NCBI RefSeq assembly: GCF_008831285.2
Contig: NC_045138.2
Span: forward strand, 28,987,934-29,051,933
Direction of reading: 5' to 3'
Source: Nymphaea colorata
Taxonomy: Eukaryota; Streptophyta; Magnoliopsida; Nymphaeales; Nymphaeaceae
Length of the DNA stretch: 64,000 nucleotides
Shown: one piece after another, positions 763-12,854 of the stretch
Numbering within the stretch: position 1 is the stretch's first letter
How the letters are laid out: each line of letters opens with the position of its first letter
Position numbers and translations under genes: made by a program
The notes under the pieces: model-generated
Databases searched by the model: none
What the model saw: only the letters and a program-made list of their open reading frames with translations
What the model was told of the DNA's origin: nothing

Positions 763-3632
763 CGTGCAGAAACAACCATTCTGTCCATAATTTGTACTGA
801 TTCCTTTGAAAGTCTGTCTAGGCATTTTATGGCAACTATGGACTCATATTGAACCTAATGAGGTTGGGAGCAGTGGGGCTAGCTGTAAGCATCAGTATGC
901 TTATGTTTTGTCTCTTTATAAAAGGTTACACAAGCTTAGGTATTGCAGCAAGGAGTACTTTTGCAGTTGTCAGTAGATTTGAAATAGTTATGGGCATCAC
1001 ATTTTCCTTTTCCTCTTCTTAGTTATTTTTTTGCCTTGTTATCCTTTGTCAAGGTATTACTATTACCAGCCTGTTCCAGTTTCCTAGTAACATTTTTGTT
1101 GATACCTTCATTGGGTAACAAAATGTATGTGTTACTTTGTAATTAATTATCTCTCTCACCACAAATCGATTTTATGTAGCAAATACATACTTGTTACAAG
1201 TGGGGCAAGTGGATTGGTTTGTCAACTACTTTAAGTTGGACAGTTCTTATCTCAATTGAGATAATGAAAAAAATCATTTCATTTTTTTATTTGAAACTTT
1301 TGGCCTGATAGCACACAGGAATCAATAGTAGGACTTGTAGCATAAAGCAGGCAGGACATAAACGGGGGAAGGAATCATTTCTCATTTAAACTGTGAAGTT
1401 GAAGTACCAAATTATCTTGTACTAATTATTGAAAGGATGAGAGTGTGTGTACTGTCACAGTGGTGGGGGAGAGGTAATTTAAAGAGTATCAAAAGCTAAA
1501 TCACCTCAAAAATGGATTTAGTATTGCTATGCCTGGATCAGGCAGGAGCATGATGTTTATAATGTGGTTTCCTCTGTCCCACCTTGCCATGAATATGCGG
1601 TCTATTACATTGATGGTGTCTGTTGATGTTCGTGAAGAAAGAAGCCAAAAAAGTTCCATTCAGATTAACCCTAATCTCTTTTCAGCGATTAGTAAAAAAG
1701 TTACATGGCGATCCTCCCTCCTTATTACATTATGTTCAAGAAATAAATAAGTCCTAAAATTTTCAAGTAAGTATCAAAAACAAATTAATATTCTCTTCAG
1801 CAGTCCCAATACATTTTAAATAAGGATTCAAATTATGTTTTGAGTTTTAAACAACCATTTCTAAGTTCTGTACTTGGCTTTCTTTATGCTGATAAGTTTA
1901 TGAGAGCTTTAGTTTGAATCTTTAGTGGCCTTTTTATTTCCTTTCATTTTTTGTACAATTAGTTCAAGATGGATCATAGGAAGCCTTCGCAGATGATATT
2001 CTTCTATTTGCTAAAGTGTGTATCTATCTCTTATTTGTCACTCATTACTCTGGTTATGCCTTTCATTTGGACATCTTAGTAATTTGATGTTTTGGGCTTT
2101 TCTTTTGAATAACTTTTTCTTACATTTACACATTCATTTTTAAACATTTTGATTTGTGGTACTTAAACAATTGTAGCCCAACCAACTATACTATGCCCCT
2201 TGAAGCATGTTGAGCATAATATTTAAACCAAGAAACCAAGCCCAGATTCAACTTGGATGAGTAATCAAAGTTCATTAAACTAAGATGAAATTCAACTTAG
2301 TGCAACTAATTATGAATTTTAGATTGCAATTAATACAATGAGTAATCAAGCTCATGAAAGAAAAGAGATAAAAGATTGAAAATAACAAAATAAACATGAC
2401 CATGTTTGTGTAACAGTTCTCACGAACGTTGCCAATTTTATAAAGAAATGCAACATAAAGATGGAAAAAATCGACAGAACGAAAATATCATGCTTTTTTT
2501 TTATGTTTTTCCATTTTCAGAAAAAAAAAATGTTTATAATTTGATTTGAAGGAGGTGCTATCGATATACAAGTTGAAGTATCCAGAGGCACCAAACGTAG
2601 GTCTGATACGATACTGTAGAGGATTGGCAAATGTATGAGACTCTTCTTGTCATCTAATGATGGAACTAAGCCTTGATTAAGTCTTCAAATTTCATGTTAT
2701 CCTAATGGCATATGCTTATCACTTGCCGTGGTGATTCCAAACACTAACTAAACTATTAAATTTTCGTACTTAGCTTGTGAAGCAAATTAGCGCACGTCAT
2801 GTAAATGGATTGGAATCAATTTTTGGGTCCCATAGTATGACAAGCCGAATTATATCAAGGCAGCTGGATTCTTGTTTGATGTATATTTTATAGTATCTAA
2901 TGTATTGAACGTTCACGTATTTAAATTTGGATTCCAACGCGATTGAAGATAAGTCTATATCATATTCAAATCTGGCTTTTACATTGACAACCGAATTTCA
3001 ATACAGAACTTCACTATTAAATATTAAAACTAACTTTCGAGATATATGCATATTGGATATAAGATATTTATTTAAAATTAACTCTGAATTTGAATCCAAA
3101 TCTGACCGGATATTGTTGAATCCAAATTCCTCCCACATCAAGCTATTGCCCTAACCCCTTGGAGAGACTTGGTTTAACATAGTTGATTTAGTTGGATCTT
3201 ACTTAATCAATTCGCTCTCCAACTGAGAGTAGGTGTTGAATTTTCATCACTGAATAGTTAACCAACAAGACTTTTTTGAAAGGTCAGGACTCATTGCAAT
3301 GAATACAATACAAATTAAGTCTCCATGTAACCAGATTGGATCTCTATCGGATTTCAGATTCAAATTCGGACTCAATAGTCTGTTATTGAGCTCGGGTCCG
3401 ATAAAAGTTCGGATTCATTTTTCTTTACCACATCCAATTAAAGGACTCCGTATAAACTCCAACGCCAATACGCATTCAAAATAAGCCAAAGGATAAATCC
3501 GGTCATTTTGAAAGTGCAAAGCTACTTTTGACGTCAGCCGAGGACCCTGAGACTGAGAGGCGATTTATATTTTCATACGTCTCATGGTTCCTTATCTCGG
3601 GGAGGCCGAAAACCTGCGTATTCCGGCGGAAA
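763..3632. other. Intergenic, AT-rich, no gene seen
   Basis: This lies between the PPR stop and the RCC1-gene start. The first few hundred bases are probably the PPR 3' UTR. I see no exon with splice sites and codon structure. From about 2920 to 3480 the sequence repeats degenerate words of the type TTYGAATCCAAATC and GGATTCAGATT, also found near 16.2-16.4 kb and 19.9-20.0 kb, so it is probably an old dispersed repeat. The short ORFs here are random. Confidence 0.6.
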
Positions 3633-6369
3633 ATGGACGCCGGACAGCCCCTAGATGTCAGGCCCCTAGCTGCAAAGGTGGTCGGAATATGCGCTGGCGA
3701 AGCTCATACGCTCGCCCTCACGGGTGAGTTATCGTTCGGATCTCAGATGAACCAGATCGATGATCTTGGTAGAAAGATTCCCGAGTTTCCGAGAACTAGC
3801 TGCGGTTTGTACTGACTGAAATCGTGATTTCTGGCAATTGCAGCCGAGGGAGAAGTGTATTCGTGGGGGCGCGGGACGTTCGGGAGGCTTGGAACTGGCA
3901 AGGAGGAGGACGAGACGAGGCCAGTCCGAGTTAGCTTCGTGTCGGGGAAGAAGGGCCAGGGCTGCTCAAATAAGCCGCCGAGGATCGTCGCCGTCGCCGC
4001 CGGGGCTTACCACAGCCTGGCTTTGGAAGGTTAGGGTTTTCTAATTTACTCCTTCGCTGTTCCTCGTTGTATTTTTTCGAATTTTTCAACAGAAAACTAT
4101 CCAATGTTCTAGCCGGGAGTGACGCCGCTTTTGGTCCGGTTCAGCCGAGCTGGCAAAGAGTTTAGTTCCCCTCATAAGAAAACTTGACAAACTAGATATG
4201 AGCGACTAATGTTGGTAATAACTAGTGTGATTCAAACTTATTATGTAACAAAATTGATGTAAAACAAGTTCTTTGGCGACTTATTTTTTACAACAAATAA
4301 ATTTGTTGGGCTTTTTTTTTTAAGCAAATGAGTTTAGAAGTTCTAATTTTGGCGGAAACAATTTTTTTATTTGTTTGAAATGATACCCAGCTAATTCAAA
4401 CTCCGCTTTTCAGCTCAGTTTTTGTGAAGACATCATACTTAATTAATGAGTTTGCTCCTTGAGGCCCCAATCACCACGCTTTACAAGGGCAGCACCACGA
4501 TCGTTTTAGGAGAAGAATAGCGTGAGAACGCTCAGAGTGCCAGGTAATACCATAAGAAATCCCGGGATGCAAAATGGCGTCATGAACTAGAATGAGTTTC
4601 CTTTTTTATTCCGTTGCGGCCTGTTTTTCTGTTGAGAGCCCAACCTTTACCGCCAGGCAAGCATGCTGTTTTGAAGCCTGACACGTTTTGCCATGTGGTT
4701 CTGCATTTGCAGATGATGGATCAGTGTGGTCTTGGGGTTACAATCTCTGTATCCTCTATCTAATGAATGATATATGTTGTTCATTATATATACAAGCTTG
4801 CACAGTAACAATACATTCTGTCAGTTGATTCCTTGACATCTACATGGATGGGCAACTTGGTGTGGATTCAGAGAATTCCTTGGTTCCTATTTTCTTGGAT
4901 GAGTTCCTTGATCTTGTTTCACCCCGCTCATTGCAGAATCAATCAGATTCTCAAGGAAAAGCACAGTTGAAGGTATAATTTAATTTCATCTGCAACTGAT
5001 AATATTATTCTTGTGCTTACATATTCGTAGAACATTGCAGATTGTTTCAATCATGGCAGATGGAATGATGTCATTTGCAATTGATAATATCGGAGGCCTT
5101 TGGATGTGGGGTAATTGTCCTCAACTTAGTAAGGATGGCGATGAACCTTTTAGTCTTGTTAGTATTCCCACTCCACGGCCTGTATGGTTTCTTCATGGTC
5201 GTTGTGTGGTGAAGGTAGAATGTGGAAATGAACATGTGGTAGTACTTGCTAGTCCAGGGGAAACAGTTTATGGAGGTGATCTCGTATGTTATGCTTGGGG
5301 TAATAACAATCATGGCCAATTGGGTCTTGGCGACAACGAATCCAGGTCGTACCCTGAAGTTGTGAAGTCCTTTGATGTGGACTCACCATGGAGTATCTAC
5401 GAGATAGCTTGTGGGTCATTTCACACTACCGTTCTGACTCGCAGGAAGCCACATTCCCCTGAAAAGGATGCACAGGAATTGAGAAGAATGAGGCTGGAAG
5501 ACAGAGCGAGTGTTTGCTGGACATTTGGACTTGGTGACAATGGGCAGCTTGGACATGGGAAGGCGACAAGCTCCTCCTTTCCTGAACCTGTATATGGGTT
5601 GCCAGAGGATGTACTGCTCAAGTCTGTTGACTGTGGATTGTTCCACACTTGTGTTGCTTCTGAGGCTGGTGAAGTGTGGGTATGGGGGATGGAGAAAGGA
5701 CTTGGTCTTTGTCCTGAAGCTACCTTTTCTGGAGAAGATCCAGGTGACGCCCTTATTCCCTTGAAGGTCATTTGCAATGAAAATATAGATTCAAATTTTG
5801 CTGCACCTGTACAAGTAGCATGTGGTGCTGCCCATACTGTCGTTGCAGCACATGATGGGTATAGGATGTGGGCTTGGGGCCGAGGTCATAGTGGTGTTCT
5901 TGGAAATGGTAGCACAGCCAACAGCCTCGTTCCTTGTACAGTGATGTGGCCGCCACTTCAGATGGATTTTGAGAGAAAGGAAGTACTTGATCGGAAGGAA
6001 AGGGCCAAACCCTCTGAATCTGAAAAGATAGCTGGTGCGAAGAAAGGAGCATCAACCCTAGAGGATATACAAGATCTCAATACAAAGATTGCATCAATGG
6101 AGAGGTATATAAATGTATTGCATACTTATATACTTGGTGAAAGGTTTGAAGATCTTGGTCTTCCTCTGGGGCCAGAGAATTCGGTGGCTGATGTTCACAA
6201 GGCATGGTGGAAGATGTTGGATTCAGCAGACGATGGGAAGCTCAATCAAATGAAAAGATTCTATCAGAGCATGCTATCTGCTGTGGAAGAAAAAATAATG
6301 AAGAGAAAGGTGCACGAAATGGTGAGAGAGTGTTTAAGCTCCTTACCTGCAGACATGAAATCATCCTAG
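3633..6369 (+). CDS. RCC1-repeat (UVR8-like family) protein, five exons
   Basis: Exons 3633-3723, 3844-4029, 4713-4748, 4848-4972 and 5041-6369 sum to 1767 nt, an intact 588-residue frame ending in TAG. The protein is a chain of RCC1 blades, recognisable by ICAGEAHTLALT, VYSWGRGTFGRLGTG, VAAGAYHSLALE, VWSWGYNL-YGQLG, YAWGNNNHGQLGLGDNE, WTFGLGDNGQLGHG, VDCGLFHTCVASEAGEVWVWG and VACGAAHTVVAAHDGYRMWAWG. A conserved C-terminal region from about residue 480 (DIQDLNTKIASMERYINVLH, ILGERFEDLGLPLGPENS) looks helical. The family forms seven-bladed propellers that act as guanine-exchange factors, scaffolds or, in UVR8, as a UV-B receptor. The C-terminal extension differs from UVR8, so photoreception should not be assumed. 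Introns 1, 2 and 4 are ordinary GT-AG. Intron 3 (4749-4847) needs a non-AG 3' end and is listed separately. The ATG at 3633 is the first that gives a full first blade. Confidence 0.9.
4749..4847 (+). other. Candidate U12-type intron (GT-GG ends) of the RCC1-repeat gene
   Basis: The 99-nt intron begins GTATCCTC, one base off the U12 5' splice consensus GTATCCTT. It contains TTCCTTGAC (4829-4837), an exact match to the U12 branch consensus TTCCTTRAC. The required 3' end is 11 nt after the branch A (4836), inside the usual U12 spacing. Joining base 4748 to 4848 gives the codon T|AT and restores the invariant RCC1 motif YGQLG and the long frame. The last two intron bases are then GG, not AG or AC. 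The nearest upstream AG (4823-4824) and the AC at 4842-4843 both throw the frame into early stops and lose the motif. Confidence 0.65.
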
Positions 6370-8973
6370 AGAATTCATAAACTATGTTATTTTATGTTAT
6401 TTATAGAGATCAGGGTCCAAGAAAGCAAATATACACTGTTCAGGCCGGATGCAGGGAATGTTGTTGGTCTTGGGAGATGGCCTATGTTTATTTGCAACTT
6501 TTGTGCAGTTGTCCGTAAAATAAGTCTTATATGCTTATACATCTAGGCACACGTTTGTGCTTCCCCTGGATGGATATATGTATGTGCAGAGTGGTATTAG
6601 TACTATTGACAGTTGCATTTCCTACACCTAGTCATTGTTCAATACTACTGAATGCAAGACATTCTCTGGAAACTCTGTAACGCTTCACATCGAGTTCCTT
6701 CCTGCACATACACACACACACTTCAGCACAGTAGTCGCCTATATGAAGATTGAATTAATTGACCCAGTGGCAATTAATTCAAGTTTTCATTATTCTGTTT
6801 CTTCTTTCTTCCCTTGCTCTTTTTTACTGATGGAGTTAAAATAATTATAATAGATTATGCAAAAAGATGCACCCAGGTATGACTGCTGGTTTCGATTCAG
6901 ACTTGGCTAGTATGCAAAAAACTGCATTCATGAGGCATCCGATGTAGCCTATAAAGGCCAAATGCCAGGTCTCTACCCAACAACTTCACCTCCCTTGAAG
7001 TTTTCTTATCCTCTTAACATATTTCACAAGTACCTCTATTGAATAACAGTAGAATAAGTTTTAATTTCAATATAACTTTAAAATCTTCCTACCTGACCTC
7101 ACTACTTTCCAACTTGAAAACCTCTTGACCCTTCCAAACCTTAGGCAAGGGAAGGCAGAACTTTATTCTGCAGAAGCCTATATGAATAATGAAGTTTAAA
7201 ACCACAACCAGGTCGCCTGATAATCAGGAAGTCTCTATTTATAGAGGATAGACACGGCCTTCAAGGTTAAAGGGAAAGACAGCCCAGAAGATTTTTTGGG
7301 TACGCATTGGAAGGGAGAATCTTTTCAGAGACGAAAAATCAGTGTTTGTGTGGAAGGCTGAATCAATTTTTACCACCAAGAAATAAAGTTCTCCACATGT
7401 ATGATGAAATTTCTGAAAGTTTTGCATATTGTTCGACATGCGACTGCACTAAATGCCTAAATGAAGAATATGATGAATTTTCGCAAAAAATGTGGGAATT
7501 GAGCAAAAGAATGTGAACAGTTTATCTGATATAATCGTTTGGGGCAATCTCATTGAGGGCTCCACAACCAAACACACCCGTAGACTTAGTTTTATTGCGA
7601 CAATGAGAAAGACGAAATCTGTATGTCCATGCCGCCGATTCCTTCTACAAACAGACACAGGCGAAACCATGGGAATGGAGAAATGGCTTTCGGTTTTATG
7701 CAGCACGCGCCGCAGCGTCTATTCCTCCCAAATGAGAAAGAAAATGCCGTTCTTAGTGTTTCAGTTTATATGTTTCCATGAATGTTACTGCTATTGACGA
7801 AAGAGCTACATTAGATACAGCAATCAAGACCAAGGGGAATACTTCCCCGAATTATCAAGGTAAGACCAACAAAACTGATAAGCAATCTGCTTGGAGACAA
7901 TGTTTGCCAAAACTGATGAGCAAGCAATCTACCTGGAAATCATGTTTGGCGGGTGTTTGGATGAGACATATCTAACCTAACTTTGTGAAAACTTAATACT
8001 TGGTTTACCTGTTTGGGTGACACCTAAAACCTAGTTTTATGAATAACCATCAGGTTTAACTCTTTTATTTTTCCTTCAGTTTTGATGGCACCCAAACATT
8101 CCAAACCTGGTTTTAGAGGCAAATAAACCAAATTCAACTGTTCAACACATTTAACAAATAAACCAACATAATGAACCTGACATATTGCCCCAAAACAAGA
8201 AGTTTACAACTAGAAGAGAGCTTTTACAACAGCAAGTTCTTCAGTACCTTGAACCTTCTCTCCAGCGGCAGTGAGAACATCGTGTGTAAGCATACGCAGT
8301 TCACAGCAGCTTCTTCTAGTTTTCACATAGATCGATGGGATGGCATCAAACATGAATTACTATCAAATTAGCAGCGCATTCCACAATCCGCTTAGCCATA
8401 TTCCATACATATCAATACACAAAAGTTACTGTTGACCAATCAAAAGACTGGTTTAAGAGCCGATCCATGACAAACAAATAGTTGAGCTTGAACGAAAAGT
8501 ACTCCATGAGGCCCCTTCATTTTCCCTTGAATCTCGTTTTTGTTTTATTCGTGTTTTGCCAGCAAAAGGATTGATTCGCAACTCCTATTTTCATTTCTCC
8601 GTCCATTCTCAGAAACAAGCACCCCCTCAACCTCACTGAGAACCGAAAATACAGATTACTTGATAGATGGGTCTGGCAAATCCTCACCTGCTGGACAAAA
8701 AAAAAAAGAAAACCTTAATCTTAAAAAAGCACAAGAAATAGGCAAAAGAAGTAGCATCTGGAATTTTGGACAGTCATGTGAATTGCTGAAACAAGGTTTT
8801 GATAGAAAGCCAAGTATTAACAATTTCATTTTCCAACAAAAGATTATCAACCAAGACGCAGAGTATTCATAACCTTTAACATAACTTGTCTTAAACTACT
8901 TAAAGCCGCAAACACTATCCAGGAATAAATTGAACTATCGATGTATAAATATAATGTGTGTGTGTGTGTGTGA

Positions 8974-9712: not shown

Positions 9713-11545
9713 TCACCTGCCCTTTTCGAAAGCAATCCTGGTTCTGCTAGACCCTCCTTCATAACTTTCCCTCATTGCAGAGCCAGCACTGGCTTTCATT
9801 GTGCCCCCACCACCAATTTTATCCATTGCCTTCTTACCCTTCTTCACCTCTGTCAAGAACTGGTCCAGACCAAAAGGATCCGCTTCTTCTGCATCCTTTT
9901 CAAACTCAACAGGCCTATCCCTAGGTCCTGCCCTTTCACTGGTACCCGCAAAACTTTTATCTGGCTTGAAACGTTCAGTTTTGAGAATCTTATCCAGTTG
10001 CTCATCCCCACCACCGTACATATCCGCATCTACATCCTTCTTGGGCCTGTACAGACTAGACAAAGTGGGCTGTGCATTAAATAGACCCTTGTCATATATA
10101 TTGTATTGATCATCTGTTGCAAACCCAGAGTCCATTCCTTTCTCCTGGTTAAAGAGCCTTTGATCATACATGACTTCTCCCGTTCTTCCAGCACCAACAT
10201 TTGCCATTCCAAGAGCAACCTTCTCACTAATATCACGATCCTTGTCTCTGGTGATCTTACTCTTCTTTCCCATGGCAATATCCTTAGCTTCCAGCCTTCT
10301 CTCCCTCTCCCTCTCACGCCTTCTCTCCTCACGAATAGCTTCACGCTTCAACCGCTCTTCCCTTTCCTCCTTTGTCTCTCTTGGATTCTCCTTCAACCTT
10401 TCAGTTTCTACCCGCCTTTCACCACCACTACTAGAGGGAGCGGCAACAGATGCCATCCGCTCTGAAGCATCAACTCCTGGCTTCTCTACAGGACCAGCAC
10501 CCGTCCTCTCCAAGCGAGCCTTCTGAGCCAAAGCACGCAGTTCCTGCTCCTTCTTATCCTTCTCCTTTAGTAAGAGTTCCCTCTGTATTTTCGACCGCAT
10601 CTCAACAGCCTCCCTGGCCTTCTGTTCAGCAACATATAAAGCCTCAGATAGTTTAGCAAAGTTGTCATTGATCTGAACTTCCTGCAACCCTCTGCCATCT
10701 GCAGCCAAACGTTTATCAAGTGGAATCGTGTAACCTTTGGGGTTTTTCCAGTTAGAAATGCAAGGTGGTATCTTCCAATCTTGTTGGTCCTTTACAGTGA
10801 CTGGACGAGGTGGTGAATGGAGGACCGGCACAGGTGGAGAACCAGATGCCTTTGGAACCCTCTTGTGCTTAAACTTGGGTGGCTCTAGAGGGTCAACTGG
10901 CATTTCCACCATCCGGATAATCCTTTCCTTGGCACCGGAATTAAACGCAGCCGATTGTTGGGATGGCTTGTATTTGATAAATGTTGGATCAGAGGACTGT
11001 ACTGGTACATTCTTTGGTTGGGCAGCACTCAACCGAACATTGACAATCTTCTCAAGTGCCTCTTTTGTCCTTTGAGTTGTCTTCTGGATCAACTCATCTT
11101 CCTCTTCTTCATTCTCTGCAGCTTCCAAGCCTCCACCCTCACCTGGGAGCTTGGGAAGGAGATCCTTATGCTGAGAGTAGACAATTTTGGACGCATTCTC
11201 ATTCTGCTTCACAACAGCATCATAGGCAACATTGCCTTCGGCATCAACATTGACGGGCAAGGTCTTTGCATCTGGTTTAGGCTCCCGCCTGCCCATATCA
11301 AGAGGATATTGAGCAACATGGATCTCAGGAAAGGCACCGCCATCCCCAAAATCCTCAGGCTTCCGTGGGACGAATCCAGCACGCTTACCATATGGTGGGA
11401 TCTGCTTGGCCTTCACTGAATGGATAGAGGAATCGGGCTTCGATGCTGGGTCAAACCGATCCTTGAACCATGGATCAGAAGAGAAATCATAGGTAGCCGG
11501 AGTGGACGATTTAGCTGGAGGAAGCAGTTCCTTTAAAGATAACAT
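9713..11545 (-). CDS. SKIP: SKIP / SNW-domain splicing factor
   Basis: A single uninterrupted frame encodes 610 residues, close to the roughly 610 of Arabidopsis SKIP. The start is ATG 11545-11543 (MLSLKELLPPAKSS). The longer frame upstream is leader sequence beyond a splice acceptor at 11591. Marks of the family are YDFSSDPWFKDRF near the N terminus, IPPYGKRAGFVPRKPEDFGDG, and the SNW core with S-N-W-K-N at residues 264-268 followed by GYTIPLDKRLAADGR. Then come a long charged helical stretch (about residues 290-470, rich in RERERR) and the plant C terminus FGLDQFLTEVKKGKKAMDKI ending FEKGR. In the nucleus SKIP joins the activated spliceosome. In plants it also works with the Paf1 complex in transcription and affects clock, flowering and salt-stress genes. 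The stop codon lies inside a perfect 5' splice consensus (CAG|GTGAG). All key motifs are intact. Confidence 0.97.
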   Translation of the reverse strand: MLSLKELLPPAKSSTPATYDFSSDPWFKDRFDPASKPDSSIHSVKAKQIPPYGKRAGFVPRKPEDFGDGGAFPEIHVAQYPLDMGRREPKPDAKTLPVNVDAEGNVAYDAVVKQNENASKIVYSQHKDLLPKLPGEGGGLEAAENEEEEDELIQKTTQRTKEALEKIVNVRLSAAQPKNVPVQSSDPTFIKYKPSQQSAAFNSGAKERIIRMVEMPVDPLEPPKFKHKRVPKASGSPPVPVLHSPPRPVTVKDQQDWKIPPCISNWKNPKGYTIPLDKRLAADGRGLQEVQINDNFAKLSEALYVAEQKAREAVEMRSKIQRELLLKEKDKKEQELRALAQKARLERTGAGPVEKPGVDASERMASVAAPSSSGGERRVETERLKENPRETKEEREERLKREAIREERRRERERERRLEAKDIAMGKKSKITRDKDRDISEKVALGMANVGAGRTGEVMYDQRLFNQEKGMDSGFATDDQYNIYDKGLFNAQPTLSSLYRPKKDVDADMYGGGDEQLDKILKTERFKPDKSFAGTSERAGPRDRPVEFEKDAEEADPFGLDQFLTEVKKGKKAMDKIGGGGTMKASAGSAMRESYEGGSSRTRIAFEKGR

Positions 11546-12854
11546 CTTTGCCAATGCAAGAAAGCTAAGAAACACAGCAGCAACAGAACTCTGCAAATAC
11601 AACAAAAAATTTGTGAATACCCAACAGCAACTAAAACGGTAGAACCATAAAAAGAAACAACGTTGAACAAATACAAACATGTTCTTCTCCCTAATCTATG
11701 GAAAGGGAAAGTGGAGAATCCAAAGAAACAAAAACTTAAAATTAAAATCCATAAATGTAAAAAAACAACTTTATCAAACGACAAAAAAGGCCTAAACTTC
11801 AAACAAAACGAAAACTCATGATGTTTTTGGCTTCAAGAGGTCACTTCAGAACAAAAACCACAATTAAAAAGAATGTTGACAGATAATCACTAGCACAAAC
11901 AATAATCCTACTAGCAATAACAAAAATCATAAATGAATCAAAAGCATAGAAGATTGATGCAACGAGTTCGGTTTAAGCCTCAAAGAGACGAATCCCAAAT
12001 CCAGTGCTGTTAAAGGTGATGAGGTGAAGTTGGATATTGCACCAATCATGAAGGGAGGCATAAGTCGTGAAGTGTTAAGGGCTTAAAGCGTAAGCTAAGG
12101 GACAACATGGTGAAATATAAAAAATTTGCAAAAAATTTTGAAAAAAGCACACAAAATAACGTATATAAGTGAACAATAACATTAAAAAAACAATTAACTT
12201 GTGTTAATAATCTCTCATTCACACAGTCACTTGCAAAACCAAAGTCAAAGACATATTTACAGTGCAAAATAAAAAAGTACATGCACAATCAGGAAATCAT
12301 ATTGAAAAAGGCTCAAAGAGACATGTGGTCATCCCTAGATGGACCTGTCCTAGCAAAACCTTCTAAACAGTGATATCTTTTTTATCCTTACAATACCTTC
12401 CAGGCAAAAAAAAGTCTCATGTACTAACATAGTTTAAATGGAAAATCAAAATAATAGAAGTCAAAAAATATACCAAGATGATCCCCACAAAAACCACACA
12501 CAAGCTTCAAGCATGCCAACAACTCAATGAAAGACAAAAGAAACAAAAAAGAAACAAGCAAAAAAAGACCCTTATTGCAAAATCAAGATTGAAAAAATCA
12601 AAATAGCAATTATAATTACCATGAGACCAATTGACCTAGCTGTAATCCCCAAAATTAAAACCCTAAACACACTAGAAAAGCCAATTTGAGCAAGAGAAAA
12701 ATAGAGTAGATATGCATAAGAACTGATTTCTCTTTTATAGGCAGAACAATTAGTTCTATAACTAGTAATAACCTGAATAAGGACTGGAACATGTCTAACT
12801 CTTGCTAGACAGAAATAAATACGAACACAAGATTGCAGTTTCAAGATTTCACTT

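What the first reader, a model, noticed from the sequence alone, without database searches (positions are those of the whole stretch)
4749..4847. A U12-type intron that must end in GG, inside a conserved RCC1 blade
Seen: donor GTATCCTC, exact branch motif TTCCTTGAC, branch A 11 nt before the only junction that restores both the YGQLG RCC1 motif and a 588-residue frame. That junction leaves GG as the last intron bases. AG at 4823 and AC at 4842 both give early stops. Known: U12 introns are defined by donor and branch site, tolerate non-AG 3' ends better than U2 introns, and place the 3' site 10-16 nt after the branch. Inference: the minor spliceosome removes a GT-GG intron here.
Basis: partly seen in the sequence, partly recalled or inferred. 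Interest (0 to 1): 0.72.

Follow-up and report, generated by a model that had tools for sequence, protein, structure and literature searches.

The report
Water lily minor intron ending GG
A plant gene (probably from a water lily) carries a rare-type intron whose best-fitting end is GG instead of the usual AG; this is a credible but RNA-untested case of the minor splicing machinery using an off-rule end site, and rare cases like it are already known.

Summary
In an RCC1-repeat gene (exons 3633-3723, 3844-4029, 4713-4748, 4848-4972, 5041-6369) the third intron, 4749-4847, starts GTATCCTC (7 of 8 matches to the U12 donor). It has an exact U12 branch motif, TTCCTTGAC, whose A at 4836 is 11 nt from the end, and it ends in GG. 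The GG junction gives 588 codons. With this donor it is the only scanned junction keeping the WGx4GxLG blade spacing, and it scores best against Pfam RCC1 among seven junctions compared. The first AG after the branch A ends 35 nt away. Matching both motifs here by chance is roughly 1.6e-6, so a U12-type intron is well supported. The GG end is inferred from coding only; no RNA or orthologue was available. DNA search found no near copy in the assembly. GT-GG introns are rare but in print for human and fly, and mentioned for plants. The result is a new member of the non-canonical minor introns, of moderate interest.

The parts
3633..3723 (+). exon 1 of RCC1-repeat gene (ATG at 3633)
   Evidence: conceptual splice; followed by GTGAGT
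3844..4029 (+). exon 2
   Evidence: TTGCAG before, GTTAGG after
4713..4748 (+). exon 3 (36 nt), ends ...TGGGGTTACAATCTCT
   Evidence: ATTTGCAG before; encodes DDGSVWSWGYNL
4749..4847 (+). intron 3, U12-type, GT-GG, 99 nt, phase 1
   Evidence: only GT-starting pair of 17,316 scanned that keeps frame and RCC1 spacing
4749..4756 (+). U12-type donor GTATCCTC (7/8 to RTATCCTT; C at +8)
4829..4837 (+). U12-type branch motif TTCCTTGAC (9/9 to TTCCTTRAY), branch A at 4836
4846..4847 (+). proposed 3' terminal dinucleotide GG, 11 nt after branch A
   Evidence: inferred from coding, no RNA
4848..4972 (+). exon 4, begins ATGGGCAACTTGG (completes YGQLG)
   Evidence: Pfam
4904..4912 (+). second exact U12 branch-like motif TTCCTTGAT inside exon 4 (codes F-L-D), A at 4911
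   Evidence: probably chance
4849..4850 (+). rival 3' end TG, 14 nt after branch A, in frame but breaks blade (WGYNLWQLG, 587 aa)
4935..4936 (+). rival 3' end AG (TTGCAG) 25 nt after the second branch-like A; gives an immediate stop with donor 4749
4945..4946 (+). rival canonical 3' end AG: in-frame, intron 198 nt, loses 33 residues (555 aa)
4960..4961 (+). second rival canonical 3' end AG: in-frame, 550 aa, 125 nt after branch A
5041..6369 (+). exon 5 with stop codon
   Evidence: CATTGCAG before

Best explanation
Intron 4749-4847 is a U12-type (minor-class) intron with non-canonical termini GT-GG. Inferred mechanism, from established biology: U11 and U6atac pair with TATCCT at the donor and U12 pairs with TTCCTTGAC, with A4836 as branch nucleotide. 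Because the 3' end is then chosen mainly by its short distance from the branch, the spliceosome uses the G-ended site 11 nt away although the penultimate base is G instead of A. The last G, the preferred partner of a G in first position, is kept. The most likely origin is a single A-to-G change at 4846 in a GT-AG minor intron, tolerated because no AG competes nearby (the first one ends 35 nt after the branch A). Shown here: motifs, spacing, frame, blade fit, no near copy in the assembly. Inferred: actual use of the junction, the snRNA pairing and the ancestral AG.
For: Donor 7/8 and branch 9/9; over 3600-6400 the donor is one of three sites with 7/8 and the branch one of two exact ones. The branch-to-end distance is 11 nt, within the stated optimum of 11-13 nt (PMC3584512 section 4). 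Exonic T at -1 fits the -1U excess of GT-AG minor introns (PMC7367187 passages). The frame is 588 aa. The junction keeps blade spacing uniquely among GT-starting pairs scanned. Pfam PF00415: 42.4 bits for GG against 31.5, 32.9, 26.5, 21.6 and 24.3 for five other in-frame junctions and 32.0 for the AT-AC pair. Alignment to Arabidopsis UVR8 runs without a gap across WGYNLYGQLG. The three other introns of the gene are GT-AG. The junction cannot slide: base 4748 differs from 4847, and 4749 from 4848. Precedent: GT-GG in human BANP, AG in fish (PMC4176328 passages); six GT-GG introns in fly, five with RNA-Seq support (PMC4528330 passages). Most non-canonical minor termini differ by one base from a canonical pair (PMC10639083 passages).
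Against: No RNA, orthologue or second allele was seen. In the plant set of PMC10639083 almost 75% of non-canonical minor introns are AT-AA, and PMC4176328 states that a 5' G splices to 3' G or T after A (GT-AG or GT-AT), so a changed penultimate A looks rarer than a changed last base. PMC5716242 calls GT-GG termini 'often discussed as potential artifacts'. Five of the 6 fly GT-GG introns have a similar alternative splice; here no AG is near. Of the Pfam models only PF00415 and PF25390 separate the junctions well: PF13540 gives 48.6 bits for GG but still 46.1 for the distal AG. The bare motif pair is not enriched in this genome (54 against 94 control), and a second exact branch motif lies in exon 4, so the branch motif alone can arise by chance. 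In-frame all-canonical alternatives exist.
Confidence: 0.62

Rival explanations
1. An ordinary U12 GT-AG intron: the A at 4846 is miscalled in the assembly, or the sequenced haplotype carries a G variant while the common allele has AG.
For: One base would make a textbook U12 GT-AG intron with an 11-nt spacing. If this is the published N. colorata assembly, it is PacBio RSII/Canu polished with Arrow and Pilon (PMC7015852 passages), so single-base errors are possible. No near copy is in the assembly to contradict the idea.
Against: A substitution error at one given base of an Illumina-polished assembly is unlikely a priori (own judgement). No reads were available to test either way.
Confidence: 0.15
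2. Another splice is the working one: GT-TG ending 4849-4850 (14 nt from the branch A, WGYNLWQLG, 587 aa), a distal canonical AG with the same donor (4945-4946, 555 aa, or 4960-4961, 550 aa), or an all-canonical form that skips exon 3 (4029 joined to 4947, 543 aa).
For: All are in frame and stop-free; the scan also lists 18 in-frame GT-AG pairs in all with various donors. GT-TG is listed among human minor intron ends (PMC8280824 passages). A second exact branch motif (A at 4911) lies 35 nt before the end of AG 4945-4946. PF13540 scores the distal AG junction nearly as well as GG (46.1 against 48.6).
Against: TG drops the Y-G of the blade motif: PF00415 falls from 42.4 to 26.5 bits; AG 4945-4946 gives 24.3. 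That AG is 110 nt from A4836 and is preceded by AG 4935-4936 (TTGCAG), which gives an immediate stop. These forms lose part of the blade encoded by exons 3-4.
Confidence: 0.1
3. The intron is not removed productively: the 3' site is broken, and the transcript is retained, or spliced to an AG that brings early stops. That would make the allele weak or null, or a nonsense-mediated off switch.
For: Retention stops after 130 residues; AG 4823-4824 after 152; AG 4935-4936 after 104 and exon 4 skipping after 118. Non-canonical termini often splice with reduced efficiency (PMC3584512 section 4).
Against: With the GG junction the whole gene is an intact 588-codon frame; no other frame defect was seen.
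Confidence: 0.1
4. AT-AC intron shifted by two bases (4751-4843), giving WGYNLCMDGQLG in frame.
For: AT-AC ends, in frame and stop-free.
Against: The donor would begin ATCCTCTA, which fits the U12 donor poorly; AC ends only 7 nt after the branch A; blade spacing is broken and PF00415 drops to 32.0 bits.
Confidence: 0.02

Closest known systems
Non-canonical U12-type (minor) introns, e.g. plant AT-AA and other departures (survey in PMC10639083)
   Same: U12 donor and branch motif, short branch-to-end distance, termini one base from a canonical pair
   Different: here the penultimate 3' base is changed (GT-GG); plant cases in that survey are mostly AT-AA
GT-GG splice sites of human BANP (PMC4176328)
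   Same: GT-GG ends; in BANP GG derives from an AG still present in fish
   Different: BANP shows alternative 3' site use in the vertebrates with GG; whether it is U2- or U12-like was not seen in the passages read. Here the first AG ends 35 nt after the branch A and the motifs are U12
GT-GG introns annotated in Drosophila (PMC4528330 Table 3)
   Same: GT-GG ends, 5 of 6 with RNA-Seq support
   Different: listed apart from the U12 rows; 5 of 6 have a similar alternative splice
Arabidopsis UVR8 and other RCC1-repeat proteins
   Same: blade sequence aligns without gap across the junction
   Different: concerns the host gene only; the protein here has, by eye, a C-terminal stretch of about 130 residues after the last blade

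Membership tests
U12-type (minor) intron | donor RTATCCTT | tested here: met
   GTATCCTC, 7 of 8
U12-type (minor) intron | branch motif TTCCTTRAY near the 3' end | tested here: met
   TTCCTTGAC, 9 of 9; the nine-base consensus is recalled, a passage of PMC2831892 gives TCCTTAAC
U12-type (minor) intron | short distance from branch A to 3' end (optimum 11-13 nt) | tested here: met
   11 nt for the GG end; optimum from PMC3584512 section 4
U12-type (minor) intron | terminal dinucleotides GT-AG or AT-AC (the two main subtypes) | tested here: not met
   GT-GG at the coding-defined end; donor and branch, not termini, define the class (PMC3584512 section 4), so this fails only the canonical subtypes
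U12-type (minor) intron | removal depends on the minor spliceosome | not testable with these tools
   needs RNA from minor-spliceosome mutants or a splicing assay
U12-type (minor) intron | minor spliceosomal snRNA present in the genome | not tested
   the search of the own genome for Rfam U12 snRNA was asked six times and never answered
GT-GG intron in use | spliced reads across 4748/4848 | not testable with these tools
   no reads available
RCC1-repeat protein | RCC1 repeats above Pfam cut-off | tested here: met
   PF00415 214.1 bits (cut-off 21.7), PF13540 132.3 (22), PF25390 244.9 (150)

The most novel reading that the evidence does not exclude
An obligate GT-GG minor intron with no AG ending within 34 nt after the branch A: the minor spliceosome picks the 3' end by distance from the branch plus a terminal G, without the penultimate A. 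If fixed in the lineage, it would be a natural test of what the 3' end of a U12 intron really requires.
Probability: 0.5. Interest if true: 0.5.

Novelty: new member of a known kind. Interest (0 to 1): 0.38.

Why it matters
If reads confirm it, this is a clean natural case in which the minor spliceosome has no nearby AG to fall back on. That bears on how the 3' end is chosen (distance from branch against dinucleotide). It also matters for annotation: pipelines that insist on AG would misplace the start of exon 4 or give this RCC1 protein a broken blade.

Tried and rejected
Rejected readings: AT-AC shifted by two bases (poor donor, spacing 7 nt, RCC1 score drops). CT-AC 4745-4843 and AT-AT 4751-4849 also keep the blade spacing, but they do not start at the U12 donor. 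Use of AG 4823-4824 or 4935-4936 with this donor (early stops). RNA structure hiding or presenting the end: fold of 4749-4880 has z -0.42 and 64 of 200 shuffles fold at least as well, so nothing.

Led nowhere: the genome-wide motif pair search gave 54 places against 94 for the reversed control. Of the 54 places, 30 were fetched and looked at; they look like a mixture with few convincing introns (one search read one strand only), so no in-genome census of minor intron ends was made. Relatives of the protein: no pattern match in viral contigs; 31 pattern matches but no relative in genome contigs, as expected of collections without plants. A paper search for AT1G19880 (recalled as a possible Arabidopsis relative), U12 and RCC1 listed 20 of 28 papers, none with AT1G19880 and none that looked relevant. 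Two key experimental papers (PMC1370826, PMC86782) are not held. Rfam over the window at gathering thresholds: 0 matches. NCBIfam: 0.

Not done for lack of answer: a protein search of the own genome for paralogues (18 calls) and a search for U12 snRNA (6 calls). Whether a diverged paralogue has AG is therefore unknown. A DNA search with 4600-5060 returned one match, the locus itself; it shows only that no near copy was found.

Full report
Setting. The window lies at 28.99 Mb on contig C1 of a 407.8-Mb, 783-contig assembly. The size fits the 409-Mb Nymphaea colorata genome with 14 pseudo-chromosomes (PMC7015852 passages), so a water lily is likely, but no call named the organism. The gene at 3633-6369 (+) encodes an RCC1-repeat protein: Pfam RCC1 214.1 bits, RCC1_2 132.3, WD40_RLD 244.9, all above their cut-offs.

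Gene model. Five exons: 3633-3723, 3844-4029, 4713-4748, 4848-4972 and 5041-6369. Introns 1, 2 and 4 are GT-AG and end in TTGCAG. Joining exon 3 to exon 4 at 4748/4848 gives 588 codons and a stop. The blade reads WSWGYNLYGQLGVD and aligns without a gap to the YGQLG of Arabidopsis UVR8.

Is the GG end forced? I tried 17,316 single-intron donor/acceptor pairs (last exon base 4719-4829, first exon base up to 4959). Of these, 4,432 keep the frame without a stop, and 14 of those also keep the WGx4GxLG spacing seen in four other blades (residues 38, 232, 308, 425); two further WG stretches (169, 361) lack that motif. All 14 remove exactly 99 nt; only one starts with GT, and it ends in GG. With the donor held at 4748, the stop-free ends 10-16 nt from the branch A are GG at 4847 and TG at 4850, and TG spoils the blade. 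The canonical stop-free partners of this donor before the end of exon 4 are AG 4945-4946 (555 aa) and AG 4960-4961 (550 aa). The other seven AGs downstream of the branch in exon 4, and skipping of exon 4, bring early stops. Skipping exon 3 and joining 4029 to 4947 is in frame with canonical ends and would give 543 aa. PF00415 gives 42.4 bits for the GG junction and 21.6-32.9 for the six alternatives scored; PF25390 gives 51.2 against 35.8-45.5. PF13540 separates less: 48.6 against 41.2-46.1. The junction cannot slide, because 4748 differs from 4847 and 4749 from 4848.

Is it U12-type? The donor matches 7 of 8 and the branch motif 9 of 9. The branch A lies 11 nt before the end; a review gives an optimum of 11-13 nt (PMC3584512 section 4). 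The base before the donor is T, the base in excess in minor GT-AG introns (PMC7367187 passages). The chance of both motifs at coding-defined borders is about 1.6e-6 (rough: four exact branch motifs on both strands of the window, the site itself and the one in exon 4 included). Against: without the coding context the motif pair is not enriched genome-wide, 54 places against 94 for the reversed control. A second exact branch motif lies inside exon 4 at 4904-4912, where it codes F-L-D. It is followed by AG at 4935-4936, 25 nt after its A, but with this donor that AG meets a stop at once.

Copy number. A DNA search of the assembly with 4600-5060 returns only the locus itself, so no near-identical second copy or haplotype was found to compare. 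The protein search for a diverged paralogue did not complete (18 tries, see Tried and rejected).

What is known. Minor introns are defined by donor and branch, not termini (PMC3584512 section 4). Non-canonical ends make up about 4% of the orthologous minor introns in plants, almost 75% of them AT-AA (PMC10639083 passages; its figure and table of end types were not seen). GT-GG sites are in print: human BANP, with AG in fish (PMC4176328 passages); six in the fly annotation, five with RNA-Seq support (PMC4528330 passages); a general mention in a plant splicing review (PMC3591102 passages). They are also described as often discussed as artifacts (PMC5716242 passages). Searches for 'U12-type introns' with 'GT-GG' found one paper and 'GT-GG' with 'splice sites' ten. 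I read passages of four of those ten, and none of these gave a read-supported U12-type GT-GG intron in a plant. The library is partial and supplements were not readable, so this is not proof of absence.

Verdict. The intron is very probably U12-type (about 0.93, my estimate). That GG is its main working end is likely but unproven (0.62). Next most likely is an assembly error or allele with AG (0.15), then another splice (0.1), then a broken, unproductive site (0.1). It is a new member of the known, rare non-canonical minor introns, most useful because no AG competes nearby.

Noticed in passing
window 9716-11557 (-): Uninterrupted frame (614 aa scanned) with a SKIP/SNW domain (PF02731, 246.3 bits), a spliceosome-associated protein family (recalled), about 3.3 kb from the end of the RCC1 gene.
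   Followed up: partly
window 4904-4936: Second exact U12 branch-like motif TTCCTTGAT (4904-4912) inside exon 4, with TTGCAG at 4931-4936 ending 25 nt after its A; could promote cryptic minor-type splicing.
   Followed up: partly
L026 (about 1500-1625, + strand) and L025 (- strand): Two of 30 fetched motif-pair places look like ordinary U12 GT-AG introns (GTATCCTTTT ... TTCCTTRAC with an AG ending 9-10 nt after the branch A); not checked for coding context.
   Followed up: no
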